A stretch of DNA of 36,944 nt from Oscillospiraceae bacterium (lineage in GTDB: Bacteria > Bacillota > Clostridia > Oscillospirales > Oscillospiraceae). Where the stretch lies: positions 1 to 36,944 of the forward strand of contig JAGBBD010000022.1 of the NCBI GenBank assembly GCA_017938625.1, in the 5' to 3' direction. The notes under the pieces were generated by a model that made no database searches, was not told the DNA's origin, and saw only the letters and a program-made list of their open reading frames with translations. Shown piece after piece: positions 1-7,262 of this stretch (positions are counted from its first letter, which is position 1; every line of letters begins with the position of its first letter). Made by a program: the position numbers and the translations under genes.

Positions 1-2715
1 ACCACAATAGGTAGCTCCGGCACCAGCGCCACAGCCAAGGTAAGAGATGCCAGACGCGATGCCTATCTGGCAGAGATGGGAGGCGGGACGATCACGACAA
101 CCAAAAACAATCCGACCACCACCACCTCGACGACCAAAAACAATCCGACCACCACCACGACCTCAACCAAGACGACCGGAAGCAATGGCTATGTGTCCAC
201 CTACGGCCCCAATGCCCTGTACACCGGTGCCGGAAACACAGCCACGTCCAACACCCAGTCGAGTACCGGGGGCACAAAGCAGACGAACGCCGGTACCGGC
301 ACAACGGCACCGACACCAACCAAAAGCACCGGCAGCAGCGGCAGAAGGACCGGCACAGGCGGTCTGCCAAAAGGGCTGAGTGCTGTGAGTCCACCCACAA
401 CTGCGCAGCGTTTGACCGATCGGGATGCCTATGACACCGGCGTGCGGAACGGATATGCAGAACGCCCTCAAAGCACCGGCAACGGTTATATCCTCCCACC
501 GTTACCGGGCTTCGGTATGACAGCAAATCAGGAATACGTTCAGCAGACACAGTCGCAAAAGCCGATCATGGCAGCCGAAACACCGGCTTCCATCACATTC
601 AATAGGTATAAAGAAAACCCCGGCTCATTTATCTATGACCATCAGAACGGCTTGCTGACAGACAATTCGGTCAATACAAAAAACACCCCCTCGAGCCAAA
701 CCTTTGCGCCCATGTTGTCGGATTATTCTCGCAAACAGGAGCTGGAGCAGCTGAAAGCCCAACCGGGAGTCATTCCCGTTCCCCAAAGAAACGACGATGG
801 CAGTATAAAATATGTTATGCCAACCCCAAATATCATCACACAGCTTTCTCTTGCCCATCCTGCTTCAGTCAATGATACGCCCAAACGCAGCGGCTTCGAT
901 ACCGTGCTTGATATGGTCAATCACGCTGCCGGAATATTTGTTACCGGTGTAAGTGGTTTTTTGGAGGGTGCCGCAAATTTCATCCCAGCGGTGGAAGGCT
1001 TTATTATGGGCGAGGATGACCCTTCCGCGACCTTCACAGGGCAGCTCCTTCAACCACTTACAACATTGACCGAGGCATTCAACGATTGGACACAACGAGA
1101 AACAAATCAGTCCGCGCAGAACTGGCAGCAGGATCTGGCGGACGAACCTGTTTTGCTGCAAAAATCAGCAAAGCTTGCCGTGTCTGCCATGGCGGCGCTT
1201 CCCTACCTTGCGGTCGTCCTTGCCAGTGGCGGCGGAGCGGCAGTGGCAGGCAGTACCACCACAGCAGCGAATGGTGCAACCGTTCTTAGCGGTGCAGGAA
1301 ATGTTTCTTTGTCACAGCTGACCCAAAGTGCCGTTTCCCAAATGGTCACCAAGCCTGCCTGGCAGGTTTCCTTTGCCCAGTCTTACGGCAATTCTTACAA
1401 CAATGCCAAAGCAAGCGGCGCATCGGAACTGGAAGCATGCGCCGCGGCTGTGCTTACTGCTTATATCAATGCCACCATTGAGCAGTCCGGCGGACTTGAG
1501 CAGCTGCCCAAGTCCTTGCAGCAGATAGACTTGCGTGATCCCCGTATGCTCCTTGACTGGCTGAAAGCCGGTGTTGCGGAGGGTGTAGAAGAAGCAGCGC
1601 AAGGGGTATCGGAACGAGCCATAGAGAAAGTTGTTTACGATCCGGACAAAAAAGTGTTCAGTCTGTCAGACTCCGATGCCGTATTCAGCGGCAAAGCCGG
1701 AGCCGAAGAGCTTGCAGGCGGCACGATTCTTGGAACACTCTTTTCCGCCGCAGCATCTGCAGGAAACAATATCATCAACACACGGCAAGTCGGAAAGAGA
1801 AATACGTCCGACAGCAATTTCGGCACAAAATCCGACAGCAGCATTGGCGCGGAGGATACCGGCAAGGTGATCTCCGATCACGGAATATCTCCGGTGGCAG
1901 CTGCACTGTCACAAGCATCCAAGGATGGACAAGCCGGTAAGATCATACGGGATTCCGGGAAAACCGCAGACCTCCTGCAGGACGGTCTGGCGATGCCGGA
2001 GGGGACACAGGCACATCAGCTTGCCGAGCAGCTTTCGGAGCAGTTGGAAACAGCGCTGACGGAAATGGGACTGGATGCAAGTGAACTGTACCATATGTCC
2101 CGGGCAGATCAGACGGAGCTCATACGGCAGGTCACAAACAAAACCCTCTCCGACCAGTCCGTCGGCGAACTGGCAAGGTTGGTAAATCAAGAATATTATC
2201 AAGACAAAGTAACATTAAATACTCCCGGAGAATACGGAGAAAAAGCAGTTCCTTACTCAGCGCGCAATATCGATATTGGAGAACGCTTGAAAAAGTATCA
2301 AGCTGAGCTCATTGCAGACGGAGACTTCGTCTGCAATGCAGTAGGCTCTTTTAAAAATGAAGACCTTGCTATTCTTACAGCTGAAACCGGTGTCGAATAT
2401 ACGGTTCTGACAATCGGAAACAATGCCTATCTTATCCGCGGAACAGAAAAAAGCACAACTATTCCAAATGATTTGCTCATCGCACTTAAAGAAAAACGAG
2501 GCACATTAGACAGTCATTCACATCCGTTTATTGGTGACTTAATCCCCTCAGAAACAGACAGAGAATTTTTGAGGATGTTGACATGGCAGAAAGATAGCCT
2601 TATAATTGACCCAACAAATAAAGGTGCAAGATATAACCCCGATGGCGTTATAGAAATGTTCAACATCGAAACTGTCCGCGACGAAAACTACTACGAAACA
2701 TTATTTCAAGAATAA
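1..2715 (+). CDS. Large polymorphic-toxin-like protein, 5'-truncated by the window, with a JAMM/JAB-like C-terminal domain
   Basis: The reading frame is open from base 1, so the real start lies upstream; the ATG at 76 is probably internal. Seen in order: a Thr/Asn/Pro/Gly low-complexity part with an 11-residue repeat (about 100-160), a long polar region, hydrophobic helices around 930-1000 and 1180-1260, an acidic helical segment with GVAEGVEEAAQG near 1570-1610, a pre-toxin junction (2053-2184), and a C-terminal domain of about 175 residues. The last domain contains HSHP followed by PSETD (2515-2559), close to the HxH-x(7)-SxxD signature of JAMM/JAB metallopeptidases; a possible upstream Glu is in TAETG near 2380. 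The layout of constant trafficking region, junction and variable tip is that of polymorphic or MuF/prophage-type effectors, and a small gene follows at once, as immunity genes do. The effector role is inferred and the JAMM assignment is tentative. Confidence 0.7.
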   Translation, partial: TTIGSSGTSATAKVRDARRDAYLAEMGGGTITTTKNNPTTTTSTTKNNPTTTTTSTKTTGSNGYVSTYGPNALYTGAGNTATSNTQSSTGGTKQTNAGTGTTAPTPTKSTGSSGRRTGTGGLPKGLSAVSPPTTAQRLTDRDAYDTGVRNGYAERPQSTGNGYILPPLPGFGMTANQEYVQQTQSQKPIMAAETPASITFNRYKENPGSFIYDHQNGLLTDNSVNTKNTPSSQTFAPMLSDYSRKQELEQLKAQPGVIPVPQRNDDGSIKYVMPTPNIITQLSLAHPASVNDTPKRSGFDTVLDMVNHAAGIFVTGVSGFLEGAANFIPAVEGFIMGEDDPSATFTGQLLQPLTTLTEAFNDWTQRETNQSAQNWQQDLADEPVLLQKSAKLAVSAMAALPYLAVVLASGGGAAVAGSTTTAANGATVLSGAGNVSLSQLTQSAVSQMVTKPAWQVSFAQSYGNSYNNAKASGASELEACAAAVLTAYINATIEQSGGLEQLPKSLQQIDLRDPRMLLDWLKAGVAEGVEEAAQGVSERAIEKVVYDPDKKVFSLSDSDAVFSGKAGAEELAGGTILGTLFSAAASAGNNIINTRQVGKRNTSDSNFGTKSDSSIGAEDTGKVISDHGISPVAAALSQASKDGQAGKIIRDSGKTADLLQDGLAMPEGTQAHQLAEQLSEQLETALTEMGLDASELYHMSRADQTELIRQVTNKTLSDQSVGELARLVNQEYYQDKVTLNTPGEYGEKAVPYSARNIDIGERLKKYQAELIADGDFVCNAVGSFKNEDLAILTAETGVEYTVLTIGNNAYLIRGTEKSTTIPNDLLIALKEKRGTLDSHSHPFIGDLIPSETDREFLRMLTWQKDSLIIDPTNKGARYNPDGVIEMFNIETVRDENYYETLFQE
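100..159 (+). repeat. 33-bp tandem repeat coding for a Thr/Asn/Pro-rich linker
   Basis: Two nearly identical units of about 27 bases start at 100 and 133 (period 33 bases, 11 residues, core TKNNPTTTT). They lie inside the large toxin-like reading frame and keep frame, so copy-number change would only lengthen or shorten the linker. Confidence 0.7.
2053..2184 (+). repeat. Pre-toxin junction repeat, copy A
   Basis: This 132-base stretch codes for a segment that includes MSRADQ and TNKTLSDQSVGELARLV just before the variable C-terminal domain. It is repeated in frame and direct orientation at 3057-3188 with about 13 mismatches. Downstream of each copy the proteins are unrelated, so the repeat marks the swap boundary between the constant part and the tip. 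Confidence 0.9.
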
Positions 2716-2729
2716 GGAGAATGTGCAAT

Positions 2730-2996
2730 ATGTTGGAGCAAAAAGAATTAAGAAGGATTGCGGTAAATGAGATTGTCCGCGTTTTCGGGCTCAAATATTT
2801 ACAGGAAACAGATAAGATGTCCTGCACAAGCGAAGGCATGGTAACAGATGATACCTATCAGTTGTTTTTGGGAATAAAAGGTTCCAAAGACCTTCCCGGT
2901 CGCAAAGCTACGGAAAAAGGCTGGGTCGTATATGGATTGATCCGGGTGGATGCTTATACCGGAGTTATTAAATCCTTTGAATATGAGTTAGAGTAA
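2730..2996 (+). CDS. Small hypothetical protein, candidate immunity protein for the upstream toxin
   Basis: The protein has 88 residues and no family I recognise with certainty. It begins with MLEQKELRR and ends with a beta-rich stretch (WVVYGLIRVDAYTGVIKSFEYELE). An AAGGAG at 2714-2719 overlaps the toxin stop codon and sits 10 bases before the ATG at 2730. An in-frame ATG at 2721 is too close to this site, so I prefer 2730. The gene lies 14 bases after the toxin gene and directly before a strong terminator, so the two form one transcription unit. That position is the main reason to propose immunity; the sequence alone does not prove it. Confidence 0.65.
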   Translation: MLEQKELRRIAVNEIVRVFGLKYLQETDKMSCTSEGMVTDDTYQLFLGIKGSKDLPGRKATEKGWVVYGLIRVDAYTGVIKSFEYELE

Positions 2997-3009
2997 AGAC
3001 AGCTAATAT

Positions 3010-3042
3010 AAAGCGCCGTGCATTTGCACGGCGCTTTTCTTC
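3010..3042 (+). terminator. Rho-independent terminator, copy 1 of an exact repeat
   Basis: A GC-rich hairpin with arms AAGCGCCGTGCA and TGCACGGCGCTT around a small loop is followed by a T-rich tract. The 27-base core at 3010-3036 is identical to 4615-4641. It closes the first toxin/immunity pair and separates it from the orphan cassette. Confidence 0.85.
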
Positions 3043-3056
3043 TTGTATCGCTTTGG

Positions 3057-3188
3057 GCGCTGACGGAAATGGGACTGGATGCAAGTGAACGGTACCATAT
3101 GTCTCGTGCAGACCAGACGGCACTCATCGGGCAGGCCACAAACAAAACCCTCTCCGACCAGTCCGTCGGTGAACTGGCAAGACTGGTG
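3057..3188 (+). repeat. Pre-toxin junction repeat, copy B
   Basis: This is the partner of 2053-2184, with a constant offset of 1004 bases, no indels and roughly 90% identity. Several mismatches are synonymous third-position changes, so the copy seems to have diverged under coding constraint or recently. Confidence 0.9.
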
Positions 3189-3566
3189 GAAGGGGTGCGT
3201 TTGACAGATGAACCGGACTATGGTATGGTAAAAAAGTTCAGCAACGAAGAGGTACGTCGTATGTATGTAGATCAGGTTTCTAAAATACATGAGTCTATAG
3301 ATCCGTCGCTGCCTCTGGAAGAGCGGGCTTTGCTTGCATTTGAGGCAAGAAACAGCCTTAGAACACAGGCAAGGGATCATATGGCAGATACCAAAACACG
3401 AAAAATTCTGGACGAAAATAAACCAAACCTCAGCTTTGATGATTTGCTAAAGTCAAAGATGGAAAGAAAAGGTTTGACAAGAGAAGAGACTCTTCAAGAT
3501 ATATACATAACAGCTACTACAACTAACCAGAATGTCAATTCTATGTTTGGAATAGGAGTGAAGTAA
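3057..3566 (+). CDS. Orphan (start-less) polymorphic toxin tip cassette
   Basis: The first 44 codons repeat the pre-toxin junction of the large upstream protein (2053-2184); after that the sequence is new. The frame opens at a GTG at 3018, but this lies inside the terminator hairpin and has no ribosome binding site, so I treat the module as a displaced 3' end rather than an independent gene. The unique tip of about 125 residues is helical and charged, with RNSLRTQARDHMAD and a C-terminal SVNSMFGIGVK-type ending (residues here NVNSMFGIGVK). This pattern resembles a tip I recall from Rhs-type proteins with unknown activity. The next gene starts immediately after the stop codon, as expected for a toxin-immunity pair. 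Orphan tips of this sort are known from CDI and Rhs loci, where recombination at the junction can place them on the active protein. Confidence 0.8.
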   Translation, partial: ALTEMGLDASERYHMSRADQTALIGQATNKTLSDQSVGELARLVEGVRLTDEPDYGMVKKFSNEEVRRMYVDQVSKIHESIDPSLPLEERALLAFEARNSLRTQARDHMADTKTRKILDENKPNLSFDDLLKSKMERKGLTREETLQDIYITATTTNQNVNSMFGIGVK

Positions 3567-3827
3567 ATGAAAAAGTATAAATATTCATACAACATTGAGA
3601 AATTTGCAGACAATGAGGCTTTTCTACAGGCTTGTAGAAGAATTGAACAGGCGGGGATTACCGATCTTCAAAAAGAGCAGCTTGCTGTTGATGTTGACGG
3701 CTCTCTGCTTCAGCTATATTACGTACCCCATGGTAGAATTATTGTATTCAACGATTACTATGTCGGTGCTGTCTATGTAGACTCTGACATCGATCTTTCT
3801 CACTTGTTCACCGTGGCCTCATTCTGA
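3567..3827 (+). CDS. Small hypothetical protein, candidate immunity protein for the orphan tip
   Basis: The protein has 86 residues and a mixed alpha/beta appearance: an N-terminal helix (DNEAFLQACRRIEQAG) followed by strands such as LLQLYYVPHGRIIVFNDYYVGAVYVD. The ATG directly follows the TAA of the tip cassette, with an AGGAGTG site inside the end of that frame, so the two are translationally coupled. Base composition is AT-richer than the core genes. I do not recognise the family; the immunity role is inferred from the adjacency. Confidence 0.7.
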   Translation: MKKYKYSYNIEKFADNEAFLQACRRIEQAGITDLQKEQLAVDVDGSLLQLYYVPHGRIIVFNDYYVGAVYVDSDIDLSHLFTVASF

Positions 3828-3869: not shown

Positions 3870-4067
3870 ATGAAGAAAATTAAACGAGTAAAGGTACGTT
3901 TTATTGCCGATGTGCGGTGCGCTTATTTGAAGAAAGGAGAAATCTACGAAGCCTTCCGTCCCCTTGACGACATTAAAGGGAACTGGTGGGGAATTTATAT
4001 TGCAGAAGACGATGATCCGGGAGATTATGCATTTCCTTCGGAATGGTTTGAATTGGTTGAGGAATAA
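3870..4067 (+). CDS. Small conserved-type protein of the toxin locus, possible immunity protein
   Basis: The protein has 65 residues: a basic N-terminus (MKKIKRVKVRFIADV), then short strands with KKGEIYEAF, NWWGIYI and a C-terminal FPSEWFELVEE. This compact all-beta pattern is common in small proteins next to polymorphic toxins, judging from memory. The ATG at 3870 has a TGAGGTG site about 8 bases upstream. A longer frame from 3837 has no such site. It lies 42 bases after the previous gene, in the same direction. Confidence 0.65.
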   Translation: MKKIKRVKVRFIADVRCAYLKKGEIYEAFRPLDDIKGNWWGIYIAEDDDPGDYAFPSEWFELVEE

Positions 4068-4087: not shown

Positions 4088-4187
4088 ATGAAAGTAAAAG
4101 AACTCAGACAAATCATATCAATATGTATCTTCCGGAAATGAAAAGGCAACCATTATTTTTGCAGAGGAGATGAATGAATATGTATGA
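4088..4187 (+). pseudogene. Frameshifted relic of a small gene in the immunity array
   Basis: An ATG at 4088 after a GTGTGG/TTTCT leader opens MKVKELRQIIS and stops after 17 codons. In the next frame, from about 4131, SGNEKATIIFAEEMNEYV continues as plausible protein to a TGA at 4185-4187. The two parts read as one small protein broken by a frameshift or internal deletion. The remaining tail overlaps the start of the next gene. Joining the parts is my inference; the original middle is missing. Confidence 0.45.
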
Positions 4188-4611
4188 TATTTATGCCCCG
4201 ATCATTCCCCGTGTGGGTATGGGCGGCTTCTTATTGAATATGTCAAAGCAAGAGGCGGAAAAAGTTTTGGGATATCCCTTGGGTGATGGCGAAAACATGC
4301 ACAATGGTGCTTGGAAAAAATACATGATTGATGACGCGCTCACCCTGTTTTTCTCCGTTCAACAAAACAAACTTAAGGCGATTGAAACGGAAAAAGATTA
4401 TAAAGGGTTGGTTTTGGGAAGAATTGGAACTTCAACAGATGAAGCCGATCTTTTGCGCTTAGATCCAACCTTGGTTTACGATGAATTTGAAGAAGTCTAT
4501 GAGTCAAAGGAACATCACTATCAAATCGAAACCTGTTTGCCTGAAGAAAAAGCAAGATGGATATCCATTTCAACCGAAGACTGGAGCGAAAGCAGGATGA
4601 TCGATCAATAA
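4174..4611 (+). CDS. Hypothetical protein, candidate immunity protein
   Basis: The protein has 145 residues. It starts with a PRVGMGGFLLNMSKQEAEKVLG segment like the 'GIGGIKLGMTKEEV' opening seen in many small Firmicute proteins beside toxins, followed by strands and an acidic C-terminal half. An AGAGGAG site at 4163-4169 serves either ATG 4174 (4 bases away) or ATG 4180 (10 bases away); the second is equally plausible and would remove two residues. The gene overlaps the relic upstream and is the last gene before the second terminator copy. It is probably an immunity gene left from an older tip, but no cognate toxin is visible beside it. Confidence 0.6.
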   Translation: MNMYDIYAPIIPRVGMGGFLLNMSKQEAEKVLGYPLGDGENMHNGAWKKYMIDDALTLFFSVQQNKLKAIETEKDYKGLVLGRIGTSTDEADLLRLDPTLVYDEFEEVYESKEHHYQIETCLPEEKARWISISTEDWSESRMIDQ

Positions 4612-4614
4612 GCG

Positions 4615-4652
4615 AAAGCGCCGTGCATTTGCACGGCGCTTCTTCCGTTTTT
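4615..4652 (+). terminator. Rho-independent terminator, exact copy 2
   Basis: The 27-base hairpin at 4615-4641 is identical to that at 3010-3036, and a T-rich tract follows (4641-4652). It lies between convergent genes and may work on both strands. Confidence 0.8.
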
Positions 4653-5301
4653 ATATACGAAGCTCTCTTTTGTTCTTTCCGCACACGCAGGTGGAGGTAT
4701 AATTGGGGTTTTCTCTGCCGCAGGTACAGTGCCATTTTCCGGCGGTTTTGATTGAGGGTGTTCGGACTGCTGCGGGGACTTGATGTTTTTCTCTGCCGCA
4801 GGTGCAGATGGGAGCATAGGCAGCATTTACCCTGCCGCACAGACAGCGCCAATAAGCGTCTTCCTCGGAGATATTCTCTCTGATTTCCATCGGGACTTGT
4901 TGTTTGCTCATTCCGCAGACACAAGTATCGGTGTACGGGAGATTAATTCTGCTGCAGCTACACTTCCAAACAGGTTTTTTCGGCAGTTTTCCCGGGCAGG
5001 TTCTTCGTTTGAGTTCTTCCAATTCAACTTCTGCCTGAAATTCTTTCGCTTCTTCGATCCAAGACCCGATAGAGTTGATGCCGCTATAGTCGAAGTATTT
5101 TTCCCAACGAATGATTACGATTAAATACATAATAATTGCATCCACAAACACGGGGAAATCATCCCTTTTGATGCCCATTTGTGCAAGAGCACGATCACGG
5201 CGAATGCGGTGGTGGATCCAATAGCAAAGAGGACCTATGGGTACAAGCAGAATGACAGCCACAAAAATAAGCAGGCATAACAATAGCGTTGATACATTCA
5301 C
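4651..5301 (-). CDS. Membrane-anchored protein with three zinc-ribbon-like repeats
   Basis: The protein has 216 residues. An N-terminal membrane segment (about residues 5-28, LLLCLLIFVAVILLVPIGPLCYW) is followed by a basic stretch and a second hydrophobic helix near residues 50-65. The C-terminal half has three copies of W-x-C-x-C-x-R-x-N-x(2)-Y-x(4)-C-x-C-G (near residues 112, 150 and 191), each with four Cys that could hold one zinc. The start is a GTG at 5301 behind AAGGGGGTG. It runs against the toxin array. The fold suggests a scaffold or sensor; I see no catalytic motif and cannot name a function. Confidence 0.7.
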   Translation of the reverse strand: MNVSTLLLCLLIFVAVILLVPIGPLCYWIHHRIRRDRALAQMGIKRDDFPVFVDAIIMYLIVIIRWEKYFDYSGINSIGSWIEEAKEFQAEVELEELKRRTCPGKLPKKPVWKCSCSRINLPYTDTCVCGMSKQQVPMEIRENISEEDAYWRCLCGRVNAAYAPICTCGREKHQVPAAVRTPSIKTAGKWHCTCGRENPNYTSTCVCGKNKRELRI

Positions 5302-5359
5302 ATAGTCACCCCCTTAACTTTCATTATCTCACAGAACGATTTCTCCGTCAAGGCAATGC

Positions 5360-5408
5360 GCAGAGCCTCTGCAGGACGGTCTGGCGATGCCGGAGAAGAC
5401 GCAGGCGC
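5360..5408 (+). repeat. Decayed third copy of the toxin gene's pre-junction sequence
   Basis: Bases 5369-5395 match 1975-2001 exactly for 27 bases (coding there for LQDGLAMPE), with weaker similarity to either side. No open frame uses it here. It is a remnant of a former toxin copy or cassette and marks the outer edge of the toxin locus. Confidence 0.75.
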
Positions 5409-5479: not shown

Positions 5480-6730
5480 ATGATCAATGTGGATATTTCC
5501 AATGTATGGACCTGCGTGTCGCTGCCGGATCTTTTGGGCAGTGAGCAGGAGGTGTTTGATGCCCATCTGCGCCTGCGCGACAACACGCCGGAGGGGCCCG
5601 ATCATATGGGCTGGCTCAATATGCCAGGTACTGCCAGCGGCAGGATGATCTATGGTATCCGGGAGGCGGCAAAGCGTATTTGCGGGAACTCTGATATTCT
5701 GGTGGTCTGCGGCAGCGGCGGCACGTACCTTGGTGCCAAAGCAGCGGTGAAGGCGCTGGGGAATGAAACGGACACACGGCTTTTGTTCGTGGGACAGAGC
5801 TTGTCTTCGGCAGAATTTCTGGAGCTGGGGCGCGTTTTGCAGAATAAGGATTACAGCTTGTTTATCATTTCCGCCGATGGCGCCGCCATGGCGACCAACA
5901 TCGCGGTGCGCAGCCTGCGCTGGATGATGGAGCGCAAATACGGCGCACAGGCAAAAGAGCGCATCTGCGTGGCGACCATGGTGGGCACGCAGATGCACAC
6001 CATGGCGCAGGAGGAGGGCTACACCCTGTTCCCGCTGCCCAAGCAGCTTGGGGGTGCTTCAAGCGCCTTGACGTCTGCTGCGTTCGTGCCCATGGCGGTG
6101 GCAGGAATCGATCCTCTGGCGGTGCTGGAAGGTGCGGCAGAGAGCCATTGGGAACTGGATATCCGCGCTTTTGAAAATCCGGCATGGATCTATGCAGGGA
6201 TTCGCCATGCGCTGATGAAGCAGGGCAGAAACCGGGAACTGCTTTGTCTGACCGACCCGGGACTGCAGGCATCGGGATATTGGCTGCAGCGGATGGCATG
6301 GCAGCGGCAGGTGGATGTGTCTGTGGAGACGGTGCTGCTTCCCGGAGATCTGGATGCCATGGATGCCATGGCGACCGATCCGCGCAGCCGTGCCTTTGAA
6401 ACGCTTTTGCACTTTGCCGGTGAGACCAGAAGAGTTCCCGTGGAAATGGACTGGAAGGACTATGACGGTCTTGGTTTCCTCTCCGGCAAAACGGTGGAGG
6501 ATGTGGAGCGGGGCATGGTGCAGGCACTGATCTCGGTCCATAATGATGCCGGTGTTCCCATTCTGGATGTGGACGCAGGAACGCTGACGGCTGAAAACTA
6601 CGGTGCCATGGTCTATTTCTTCGAGTTGGCAAACGCGCTGAATTCCGTCATGAATGACCATGACCCCTTTGCACCGTTTGGCGGTACGGTCGCACAGACG
6701 GCGATGAGGCTGCTGGGCGGCGCCTGTTGA
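5480..6730 (+). CDS. Glucose-6-phosphate isomerase-like protein with a degenerate active site
   Basis: The protein has 416 residues, slightly short of the roughly 450 of Bacillus-type Pgi, and aligns along its whole length: HMGWLNMP (residues 42-49), the first SIS loop CGSGGTYLGAKAA (77-89), DGLGFLSGKT (329-338), HNDAGVP (354-360) and YGAMVYFFELA (374-384). From memory, Bacillus Pgi has SKSGTTTE, GGRYSVLT, GESEGK and GVEAYK at sites that here read SADGAAMA (131-138), GGASSALT (191-198), AWQRQV and GGTVAQ (401-406). So the phosphate-binding Ser/Thr loop and the catalytic Arg, Glu and Lys appear to be lost, while one His remains. The frame is intact with its own promoter, so it is not simply decaying. 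It is either a pseudoenzyme, perhaps a sugar-phosphate sensor, or an isomerase of altered specificity. Confidence 0.8.
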   Translation: MINVDISNVWTCVSLPDLLGSEQEVFDAHLRLRDNTPEGPDHMGWLNMPGTASGRMIYGIREAAKRICGNSDILVVCGSGGTYLGAKAAVKALGNETDTRLLFVGQSLSSAEFLELGRVLQNKDYSLFIISADGAAMATNIAVRSLRWMMERKYGAQAKERICVATMVGTQMHTMAQEEGYTLFPLPKQLGGASSALTSAAFVPMAVAGIDPLAVLEGAAESHWELDIRAFENPAWIYAGIRHALMKQGRNRELLCLTDPGLQASGYWLQRMAWQRQVDVSVETVLLPGDLDAMDAMATDPRSRAFETLLHFAGETRRVPVEMDWKDYDGLGFLSGKTVEDVERGMVQALISVHNDAGVPILDVDAGTLTAENYGAMVYFFELANALNSVMNDHDPFAPFGGTVAQTAMRLLGGAC

Positions 6731-6851: not shown

Positions 6852-7262
6852 ATGGTTAAGGTAATCGCCGGCCTGAAAGGTTCCGGTAAAACTAAGAAAT
6901 TGATCGATTCCATCAACACTGCAGTCAAGACTGAATCCGGCAGCATGGTCTGCATCGAAAAGGGCAGCGCCCTGACTTTCGACATCGACTATCGTGTCCG
7001 CCTCATCGACGCCAGTGAGTACGATATTGGCAGCTACACTTTCCTCAAGGGTTTCATCAGCGGCCTGCACGCAGGTAACTTTGATATTTCCCACATCTTT
7101 ATCGACGGTCTGTTCAAGCTGTCCGGCACCAACGACGGCGAAGAGACTGCCGCATTCCTGGCATGGTGCGAAGCTTTCGGTGAAGCCAACAAGATGGAGT
7201 TCACCATCTCTGTTTCCGAAGATCCCGCAAAGCTGCCCGAGAGCGTTACCAAGTTTATCTGA
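6852..7262 (+). CDS. Small P-loop nucleotide-binding protein (often labelled twitching motility/PilT-like)
   Basis: The protein has 136 residues. A Walker A motif GLKGSGKT lies at residues 7-14, directly after the first strand (VKVIA), and a hydrophobic strand ending in an acidic residue, HIFIDGL near residue 83, is a good Walker B candidate. The remainder is alpha/beta without added domains, so it is a minimal P-loop NTPase. Similar short proteins in Clostridia carry the name PilT, but no type IV pilus genes are nearby and the true role is unknown. It has its own promoter and terminator and a strong ribosome binding site, so it is a well-expressed single-gene unit. Confidence 0.75.
   Translation: MVKVIAGLKGSGKTKKLIDSINTAVKTESGSMVCIEKGSALTFDIDYRVRLIDASEYDIGSYTFLKGFISGLHAGNFDISHIFIDGLFKLSGTNDGEETAAFLAWCEAFGEANKMEFTISVSEDPAKLPESVTKFI

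What the first reader, a model, noticed from the sequence alone, without database searches (positions are those of the whole stretch)
2053..3566. Orphan toxin tip behind a duplicated junction: a tip-swapping polymorphic toxin locus
The 132-base junction at 2053-2184 recurs at 3057-3188 in frame and in the same direction at about 90% identity, and the sequences after it are unrelated. The second copy has no usable start of its own. Recombination between the copies would remove about 1004 bases and fuse the orphan tip to the main protein. This is the logic of CDI/Rhs orphan modules in a Clostridia effector of a different backbone.
Basis: partly seen in the sequence, partly recalled or inferred. 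Interest (0 to 1): 0.75.

Follow-up and report, generated by a model that had tools for sequence, protein, structure and literature searches.

The report
Swappable toxin tied to phage-particle genes
A Clostridia genome carries a toxin-type gene with a spare, apparently silent toxin tip and its presumed antidote parked behind it, and the gene's control region closely matches those of the genome's scattered phage-shell genes, which suggests that the exchangeable toxin may be cargo of a domesticated phage particle.

Summary
In detail: a 131-base junction (2053-2183) recurs at 3057-3187 (119 of 131 identical), in frame, 1004 bases on, with unrelated sequence after it. The second copy follows a terminator-like hairpin and contains no start codon with a convincing ribosome site. 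The tip behind it (3188-3566) is a toxin-type tip: in 15 of 15 related loci the same kind of small gene as 3567-3827 follows it, and in 7 of 9 carriers scanned it ends a phage MuF/minor-capsid protein. Parked tips behind duplicated junctions recur in 2 of 13 loci tested.

New here: the main gene's start codon lies 15 bases off-window; its backbone occurs in large phage proteins; and its 100-base leader recurs in this genome only before a second copy of the gene and before two separate phage operons (terminase-portal; capsid-tail, 86%). Those phage genes are conserved across the genus under purifying selection and resemble the Faecalibacterium gene transfer agent. Best reading: a polymorphic toxin co-regulated with, and probably carried by, a domesticated phage particle. 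Expression, toxicity, delivery and exchange are inferred, not shown.

The parts
1..2715 (+). Main toxin-type gene; the start codon lies 15 bases upstream, on contig C35 (and a second copy of the start on C22)
   Evidence: Open frame; window bases 1-119 equal the last 119 bases of C35, which carries ATG and AGGAGG just upstream
850..1840 (+). Backbone stretch shared with large phage proteins
   Evidence: 14 of 400 family genomes including the own one
1930..2052 (+). Hinge with the MPEGT motif, shared with L021, L028 and L032
2053..2183 (+). Junction, copy 1
2188..2715 (+). Tip 1, weakly JAB-like (HSHP...S..D motif recognised by eye)
   Evidence: Prok-JAB E 0.17; relatives in a Deinococcus plasmid and G013
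2730..2996 (+). Presumed antidote gene of tip 1
   Evidence: 30% identical to the gene behind the Deinococcus relative of tip 1; AGGAGA upstream
3010..3037 (+). Terminator-like hairpin before the orphan module
3057..3187 (+). Junction, copy 2 (orphan)
3188..3566 (+). Tip 2, orphan toxin-type tip
3567..3827 (+). Presumed antidote gene of tip 2
   Evidence: Same family directly behind tip 2 in 15 of 15 loci
3870..4067 (+). Small gene, possibly a leftover antidote (inferred from position)
   Evidence: no relative in plasmids
4174..4611 (+). Small gene, possibly a leftover antidote (inferred from position)
   Evidence: no relative in plasmids or phages
4615..4641 (+). Second copy of the hairpin sequence, closing the orphan module
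5359..5406 (+). Remnant of a third junction copy (matches 1965-2012 at 88%)

Best explanation
The locus is a polymorphic-toxin islet of roughly 5.8 kb inserted between ylxM and a pgi-like gene. The main gene joins a backbone related to large phage polyvalent proteins to a C-terminal tip with its own presumed antidote gene. A second tip with its antidote lies silent behind a duplicated junction and a terminator. Homologous recombination across the junction could delete 1004 bases and put tip 2 on the backbone (inferred). The gene has the same leader as the genome's separated phage terminase-portal and capsid-tail operons, so toxin and particle are probably made together; the protein is most likely packaged in or attached to that particle and delivered to related cells (inferred). 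Shown here: junction duplication, tip-antidote linkage, backbone kinship, empty site in a sister species, shared leader, conserved phage genes. Not shown: expression, toxicity, protection, exchange, packaging, delivery.
For: Junction duplication in frame. Tip 2 followed by the same gene family in 15 of 15 loci, 11 of 11 after leaving out seeds and near-copies of seeds. Same-backbone protein in G005 with Colicin-DNase/WHH tip and SUKH gene. Parked tips behind duplicated junctions in L061 and L063. Backbone relatives with LPD3 or MuF_C domains. Empty site in G002. Leader at 86% before terS-terL-portal and before the capsid operon; a 33-base pattern finds four places in the genome, two phage operons and two toxin starts, with 0 reversed controls and 0 in 7 other genus genomes. 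Within G005 the terS and capsid leaders match at 97 of 105. Phage genes conserved in the genus with dN/dS 0.11-0.34. In G005 the toxin contig also holds scaffold-gene copies and a portal 3' end.
Against: No expression, toxicity or particle data. The leader does not occur on the G005 toxin contig as held, and the leaders of other genus members differ from that of G000. G006 and G001 capsid leaders resemble each other (z 64) more than the two G006 leaders do (z 12), so within-genome likeness is not a strict rule. The phage genes might be remnants of prophages; capsid dN/dS reaches 0.34. Tip 1 is only weakly recognised. In the four most distant tip-2 relatives the antidote family is absent. No junction variant from the same species is held.
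Confidence: 0.55

Rival explanations
1. Ordinary chromosomal polymorphic toxin with a displaced orphan module, delivered by an unrelated route; the shared leader is only a relic of the gene's phage ancestry.
For: The orphan-module anatomy stands without any particle. The islet is not beside the phage operons in G000: they are on C42, the islet is on C35/C12. No leader was found on the G005 toxin contig.
Against: The leader is 86-96% alike over about 100 nt at all four places while leaders differ between species, which argues for upkeep rather than relic. The backbone kin are phage late proteins.
Confidence: 0.27
2. Phage early-effector reading: the protein acts on the infected or producing cell or on rival phages, as polyvalent proteins are thought to do, not in killing neighbours.
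For: Backbone relatives are polyvalent-type phage proteins with LPD3 or MuF_C; tip 2 mostly sits on minor capsid proteins.
Against: Dedicated antidote genes beside each tip fit self-protection from a delivered toxin.
Confidence: 0.11
3. Decaying duplication: the second module and the remnants are debris without function.
For: The copy at 5359-5406 is a remnant; the junction copies differ at 12 of 131 bases.
Against: Tip 2 and its partner gene are both open and tip 2 aligns over its length with 13 relatives; changes between junction copies are mostly synonymous (dN/dS 0.125, only 44 codons).
Confidence: 0.07

Closest known systems
Rhs/CDI orphan toxin-immunity modules (Koskiniemi 2014, PMC3967940: abstract and passages seen)
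   Same: Tip-antidote pair downstream of the main gene, in-frame stretch of shared sequence, no translation start; there recombination across 522 bp at 95% identity fused the orphan tip to the main gene
   Different: No Rhs or CdiA domain was found in the window protein; shared stretch 131 bp at 91%; fusion not observed here
MuF polymorphic toxins of temperate phages (Jamet 2017, PMC5576092: passages seen)
   Same: Tip 2 and its antidote occur on MuF/minor-capsid proteins
   Different: The window protein has no MuF domain hit; the word 'orphan' does not occur in that paper's main text
Phage polyvalent proteins (Iyer 2017, PMC5512222: passages seen)
   Same: Backbone kinship; that paper notes small frames near some polyvalent genes reminiscent of polymorphic-toxin cassettes
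   Different: Window protein is short, has no LPD domain hit and lies outside a prophage
FpGTA, Faecalibacterium gene transfer agent (Borodovich 2026, PMC12946183: section 9 read whole, other passages seen)
   Same: Podovirus-type TerS, TerL, portal, scaffold, capsid and tail/lysis genes in separated operons, widespread in a genus
   Different: Operons are split differently here; orthology to FpGTA was not tested; 'toxin', 'effector' and 'immunity' do not occur in its main text

Membership tests
Polymorphic toxin system | Shared backbone with different C-terminal tips | tested here: met
   Same backbone in G005 with another tip, at 27-30% identity; no close relative available
Polymorphic toxin system | Antidote gene directly behind the tip | tested here: met
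   Tip 2: 15 of 15 loci; tip 1: one relative pair at 30%
Polymorphic toxin system | Tip is toxic and antidote protects | not testable with these tools
   Needs expression tests
Rhs/CDI-type orphan module | Displaced tip behind an in-frame copy of the junction, without its own start | tested here: met
   weak start inside the tip not excluded
Rhs/CDI-type orphan module | Rhs or CdiA backbone | tested here: not met
   No such Pfam or NCBIfam match
Rhs/CDI-type orphan module | Recombination between main gene and orphan observed | not testable with these tools
   No reads available
MuF phage toxin | MuF domain in the carrier | tested here: not met
   Window main protein without PF04233 match up to E 1; tip 2 elsewhere on MuF proteins
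Phage polyvalent protein | LPD or other polyvalent-protein domain | tested here: not met
   None in the window protein; in backbone relatives LPD3 in 3 of 6 above cut-off, 1 just below
Gene transfer agent (for the phage operons, not the toxin) | Phage structural genes split over separate loci | tested here: met
   Two operons on C42 with host genes between; separate contigs in G005, G006, G007, with 8-11 kb free of terL/portal upstream of the capsid gene in G001 and G005
Gene transfer agent (for the phage operons, not the toxin) | Maintained in the lineage under purifying selection | tested here: met
   8 of 8 genus genomes have terL or the capsid gene; dN/dS 0.11-0.34
Gene transfer agent (for the phage operons, not the toxin) | No replication or integration genes of a phage | tested here: inconclusive
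   None noticed in the frames read on C42; only part of the flanks was scanned
Gene transfer agent (for the phage operons, not the toxin) | Particles package random host DNA | not testable with these tools
   Needs particles

The most novel reading that the evidence does not exclude
A domesticated, dispersed podovirus-like particle (gene-transfer-agent type) of Clostridia carries polymorphic toxin cargo: toxin islets keep the particle's leader, are made with it, and renew their payload by recombining parked tip-antidote cassettes.
Probability: 0.4. Interest if true: 0.92.

Novelty: new variant of a known kind. Interest (0 to 1): 0.77.

Why it matters
Why domesticated phage particles persist in bacteria is open. 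A control region shared between particle genes and an exchangeable toxin would give them a direct competitive use and makes the question testable: look for backbone-type proteins in purified particles. It also adds a phage polyvalent-type backbone to the carriers whose tips are exchanged by the orphan-cassette logic known from Rhs and CDI. In the library searched, 7 papers hold both 'gene transfer agent' and 'polymorphic toxin', none with both in title or abstract (listing only); a second search with related terms listed no paper on gene transfer agents among the 8 shown of 51.

Tried and rejected
Chance repeat: rejected. Tip 2 as a free-standing gene: no convincing start in the junction; a start inside the tip (ATG 3261) is possible but weak. 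L064 is a relative whose tip lies in a separate frame from a truncated MuF piece. Window locus as part of a prophage: rejected for this site, since its flanks (ffh-ylxM on C35, pgi-like gene in the window) adjoin in G002. Beside the pgi-like gene of six other genus genomes no part of the toxin locus was found, two of the six with under 2 kb of upstream sequence. Close relatives of backbone or junction: none in viral contigs, phages or genome contigs. Tip 1: none in phages or viral contigs. Small genes at 3870 and 4174: none where searched. Solved structures: none for tip 1 or the backbone; for tip 2 only weak matches, best E 0.012. Among 13 tip-2 loci tested for duplicated junctions, L062 gave only weak translated matches on the opposite strand, not counted.
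Full report
What was claimed and what is there. The repeat is as described apart from its last base: 2053-2183 and 3057-3187, 131 nt, 119 identical, spacing 1004. Both copies are read in the same phase, with 4 residue changes in 44 codons. The sequences behind the copies are unrelated. The second copy begins 20 bases after a terminator-like hairpin of 12 pairs (3010-3037). Start codons inside the junction copy match AGGAGG at 3 of 6 bases, the commonest score at random positions; the small genes at 2730, 3567 and 3870 score 5 and that at 4174 scores 4. Inside the tip ATG 3261 scores 5, so a short product cannot be excluded. The hairpin sequence recurs at 4615-4641; the genome search returned no further copy. 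A third, shorter junction remnant lies at 5359-5406. GC is 55-58% in backbone and junctions, 39-42% in tips and small genes.

Tip 2 is a toxin-type tip with a constant partner. Matches: 3 of 400 family genomes including the own one, 3 plasmid and 3 phage records, 10 loci of genome contigs, 5 of viral contigs. In the Mycobacterium phage record the matching gene is annotated 'polymorphic toxin protein' and the next one 'polymorphic immunity protein'; the latter is of another family (DUF7161). A profile of the gene at 3567-3827, built from three sequences, finds a relative directly behind tip 2 in 15 of 15 loci and in no other of 2165 segments; 4 of the 15 are a seed contig or near-copies of a seed, so 11 of 11 are independent. 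In the four more distant relatives (L039, L040, L042, L043) it is absent. Pfam on nine of the fifteen carrier frames finds MuF or phage minor-capsid domains in seven; L040 has MuF as well.

Parked tips recur. Of 13 tip-2 loci tested (L073 and L074, near-copies of L072, were left out), two have the stretch before tip 2 duplicated nearby: L061 (266 nt, 88%) and L063 (328 nt, 89%, plus partial copies). In L061 a main gene with a PBECR3 tip is followed by the tip-2 module and then by a module with a papain-fold toxin domain (PF15644). In L063 several short tip-like frames share the junction; Pfam named little there.

Tip 1 is less clear. It resembles JAB domains only weakly (Prok-JAB E 0.17). Relatives: one plasmid record and one of 390 family genomes besides the own one. 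Both are short frames with a small gene behind; the Deinococcus small gene is 30% identical to 2730-2996.

The backbone is kin to phage late proteins. It was found in 14 of 400 family genomes including the own one, in open frames up to 3225 aa. PHROG scans of neighbours in six of these loci found tail fibre, portal, holin or endolysin matches in three (L022, L027, L028) and none for the single neighbours scanned in L020, L024 and L026. Five of the proteins were scanned with Pfam: three have LPD3 above its cut-off, one just below, one has MuF_C. L061 is linked to the backbone only by a weak profile match, probability 83% over 96 columns. The nearest relative, in G005 of the same genus (27-30% identity), ends in a Colicin-DNase/WHH tip with a SUKH gene behind it. 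A further 84% copy of its hinge region lies downstream on the same contig, out of frame with what follows.

Gene start and site. The first 119 bases of the window equal the last 119 of contig C35, which supplies a start codon 15 bases upstream and an AGGAGG site. C35 ends with ffh and ylxM. In G002 ylxM and the pgi-like gene adjoin, with 77 bases between the two aligned blocks. So the islet occupies a site that is empty in a sister species, and C35-C12 adjacency rests on the overlap and on synteny. A second copy of leader and gene start (96% over 332 nt) lies at the end of contig C22 beside a SpoIIE-domain gene. The genome is a draft, 71% complete.

The leader. About 90 bases before the toxin start lies an element of about 100 nt with four GGCAGAnnn repeats (one varied in the phage copies) and an extended -10 box, both recognised by eye. 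It recurs at 86% on contig C42 twice: before terS-terL-portal, and before a capsid-connector-tail-amidase operon that ends in a scaffold-like gene. Isocitrate dehydrogenase and an aconitase-family gene lie between them. A 33-base pattern with up to 3 mismatches finds these four places and no other in G000, no reversed control, and nothing in the 7 other genus genomes. Leaders differ between species, yet within G005 the terS and capsid leaders, on different contigs, match at 97 of 105. G006 shows the same more weakly (z 12). G002 has a terS leader and a similar one before a DUF6291 gene. A shared regulator would maintain such a pattern. Against a strict rule, G006 and G001 capsid leaders are closer to each other (z 64) than the two G006 leaders are, and the leader is not on the G005 toxin contig as held.

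The phage operons look domesticated. The capsid gene is in 81 of 340 family genomes; in the genus it is in 6 of the 7 genomes that the answer shows (G002 is not in that list), at 76-80%. terL is in 6 of 8 at 79-85%. Each of the 8 has one or the other. In other genera terL, portal, capsid and tail genes are contiguous (G079, G256, G065; in G154 portal to tail from the contig edge), 4 of 4 fetched. In this genus they lie apart: 4 kb apart and divergent in G000; on separate contigs in G005, G006 and G007; with 8-11 kb upstream of the capsid gene free of terL and portal in G001 and G005, and 18 kb around terL free of the capsid gene in G006. Separate contigs alone would be weak evidence in draft genomes. 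dN/dS is 0.11 (terL), 0.12 (portal), 0.16-0.34 (capsid), against 0.06 for ffh. The gene content resembles FpGTA of Faecalibacterium (PMC12946183, section 9 read); orthology was not tested. On the G005 toxin contig lie two copies of the scaffold gene and a portal 3' end; both scaffold copies are in a perfect 605-base repeat, one at the contig end, so an assembly artefact is possible. In L027 the gene before the backbone-bearing giant protein is kin to the p524 gene of the C42 operon, 50% over 167 residues.

Reading. Established here: a displaced tip-antidote module behind a duplicated junction; a phage-kin backbone; a leader shared with conserved, separated phage operons. Inferred: tip exchange by recombination (precedent: Rhs in Salmonella, PMC3967940, passages seen), co-expression, packaging and delivery, toxicity. 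The most economical mechanism is a particle-borne polymorphic toxin whose payload is renewed by parked cassettes.

Noticed in passing
window 5480-6730: The pgi-like gene is only 51-58% identical among genus members while the next gene (6852-7262) is 84-93% identical; each genus genome has a second pgi-like gene.
   Followed up: no
window 2578-2606: A 12-of-12 sigma-70-type promoter match lies inside the tip 1 coding sequence, upstream of the presumed antidote gene 2730-2996; a weaker one (10 of 12) at 3201-3229 precedes the second antidote.
   Followed up: no
L096 6050-9810: Isocitrate dehydrogenase and an aconitase-family gene lie between two divergent phage operons that have the same leader.
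   Followed up: partly
L063 1215-5673: A Clostridiales contig carries several short tip-like frames behind repeated junction sequence, three of them with long in-frame junctions.
   Followed up: partly
L021 544-1148 and 4820-5424: Perfect 605-base repeat around a scaffold-like gene, one copy at the contig end; possibly an assembly effect.
   Followed up: partly
L133 3673-4237: In G002 a similar leader precedes a DUF6291 gene, possibly a further member of the phage-particle regulon.
   Followed up: partly
L044 2986-3599: A Deinococcus gobiensis plasmid has a stand-alone relative of tip 1 with a small gene behind it.
   Followed up: partly
window 4651-5301: Minus-strand frame with a hydrophobic start and repeated cysteine-rich (zinc-ribbon-like, by eye) segments, inside the islet; no family match above cut-off.
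   Followed up: no
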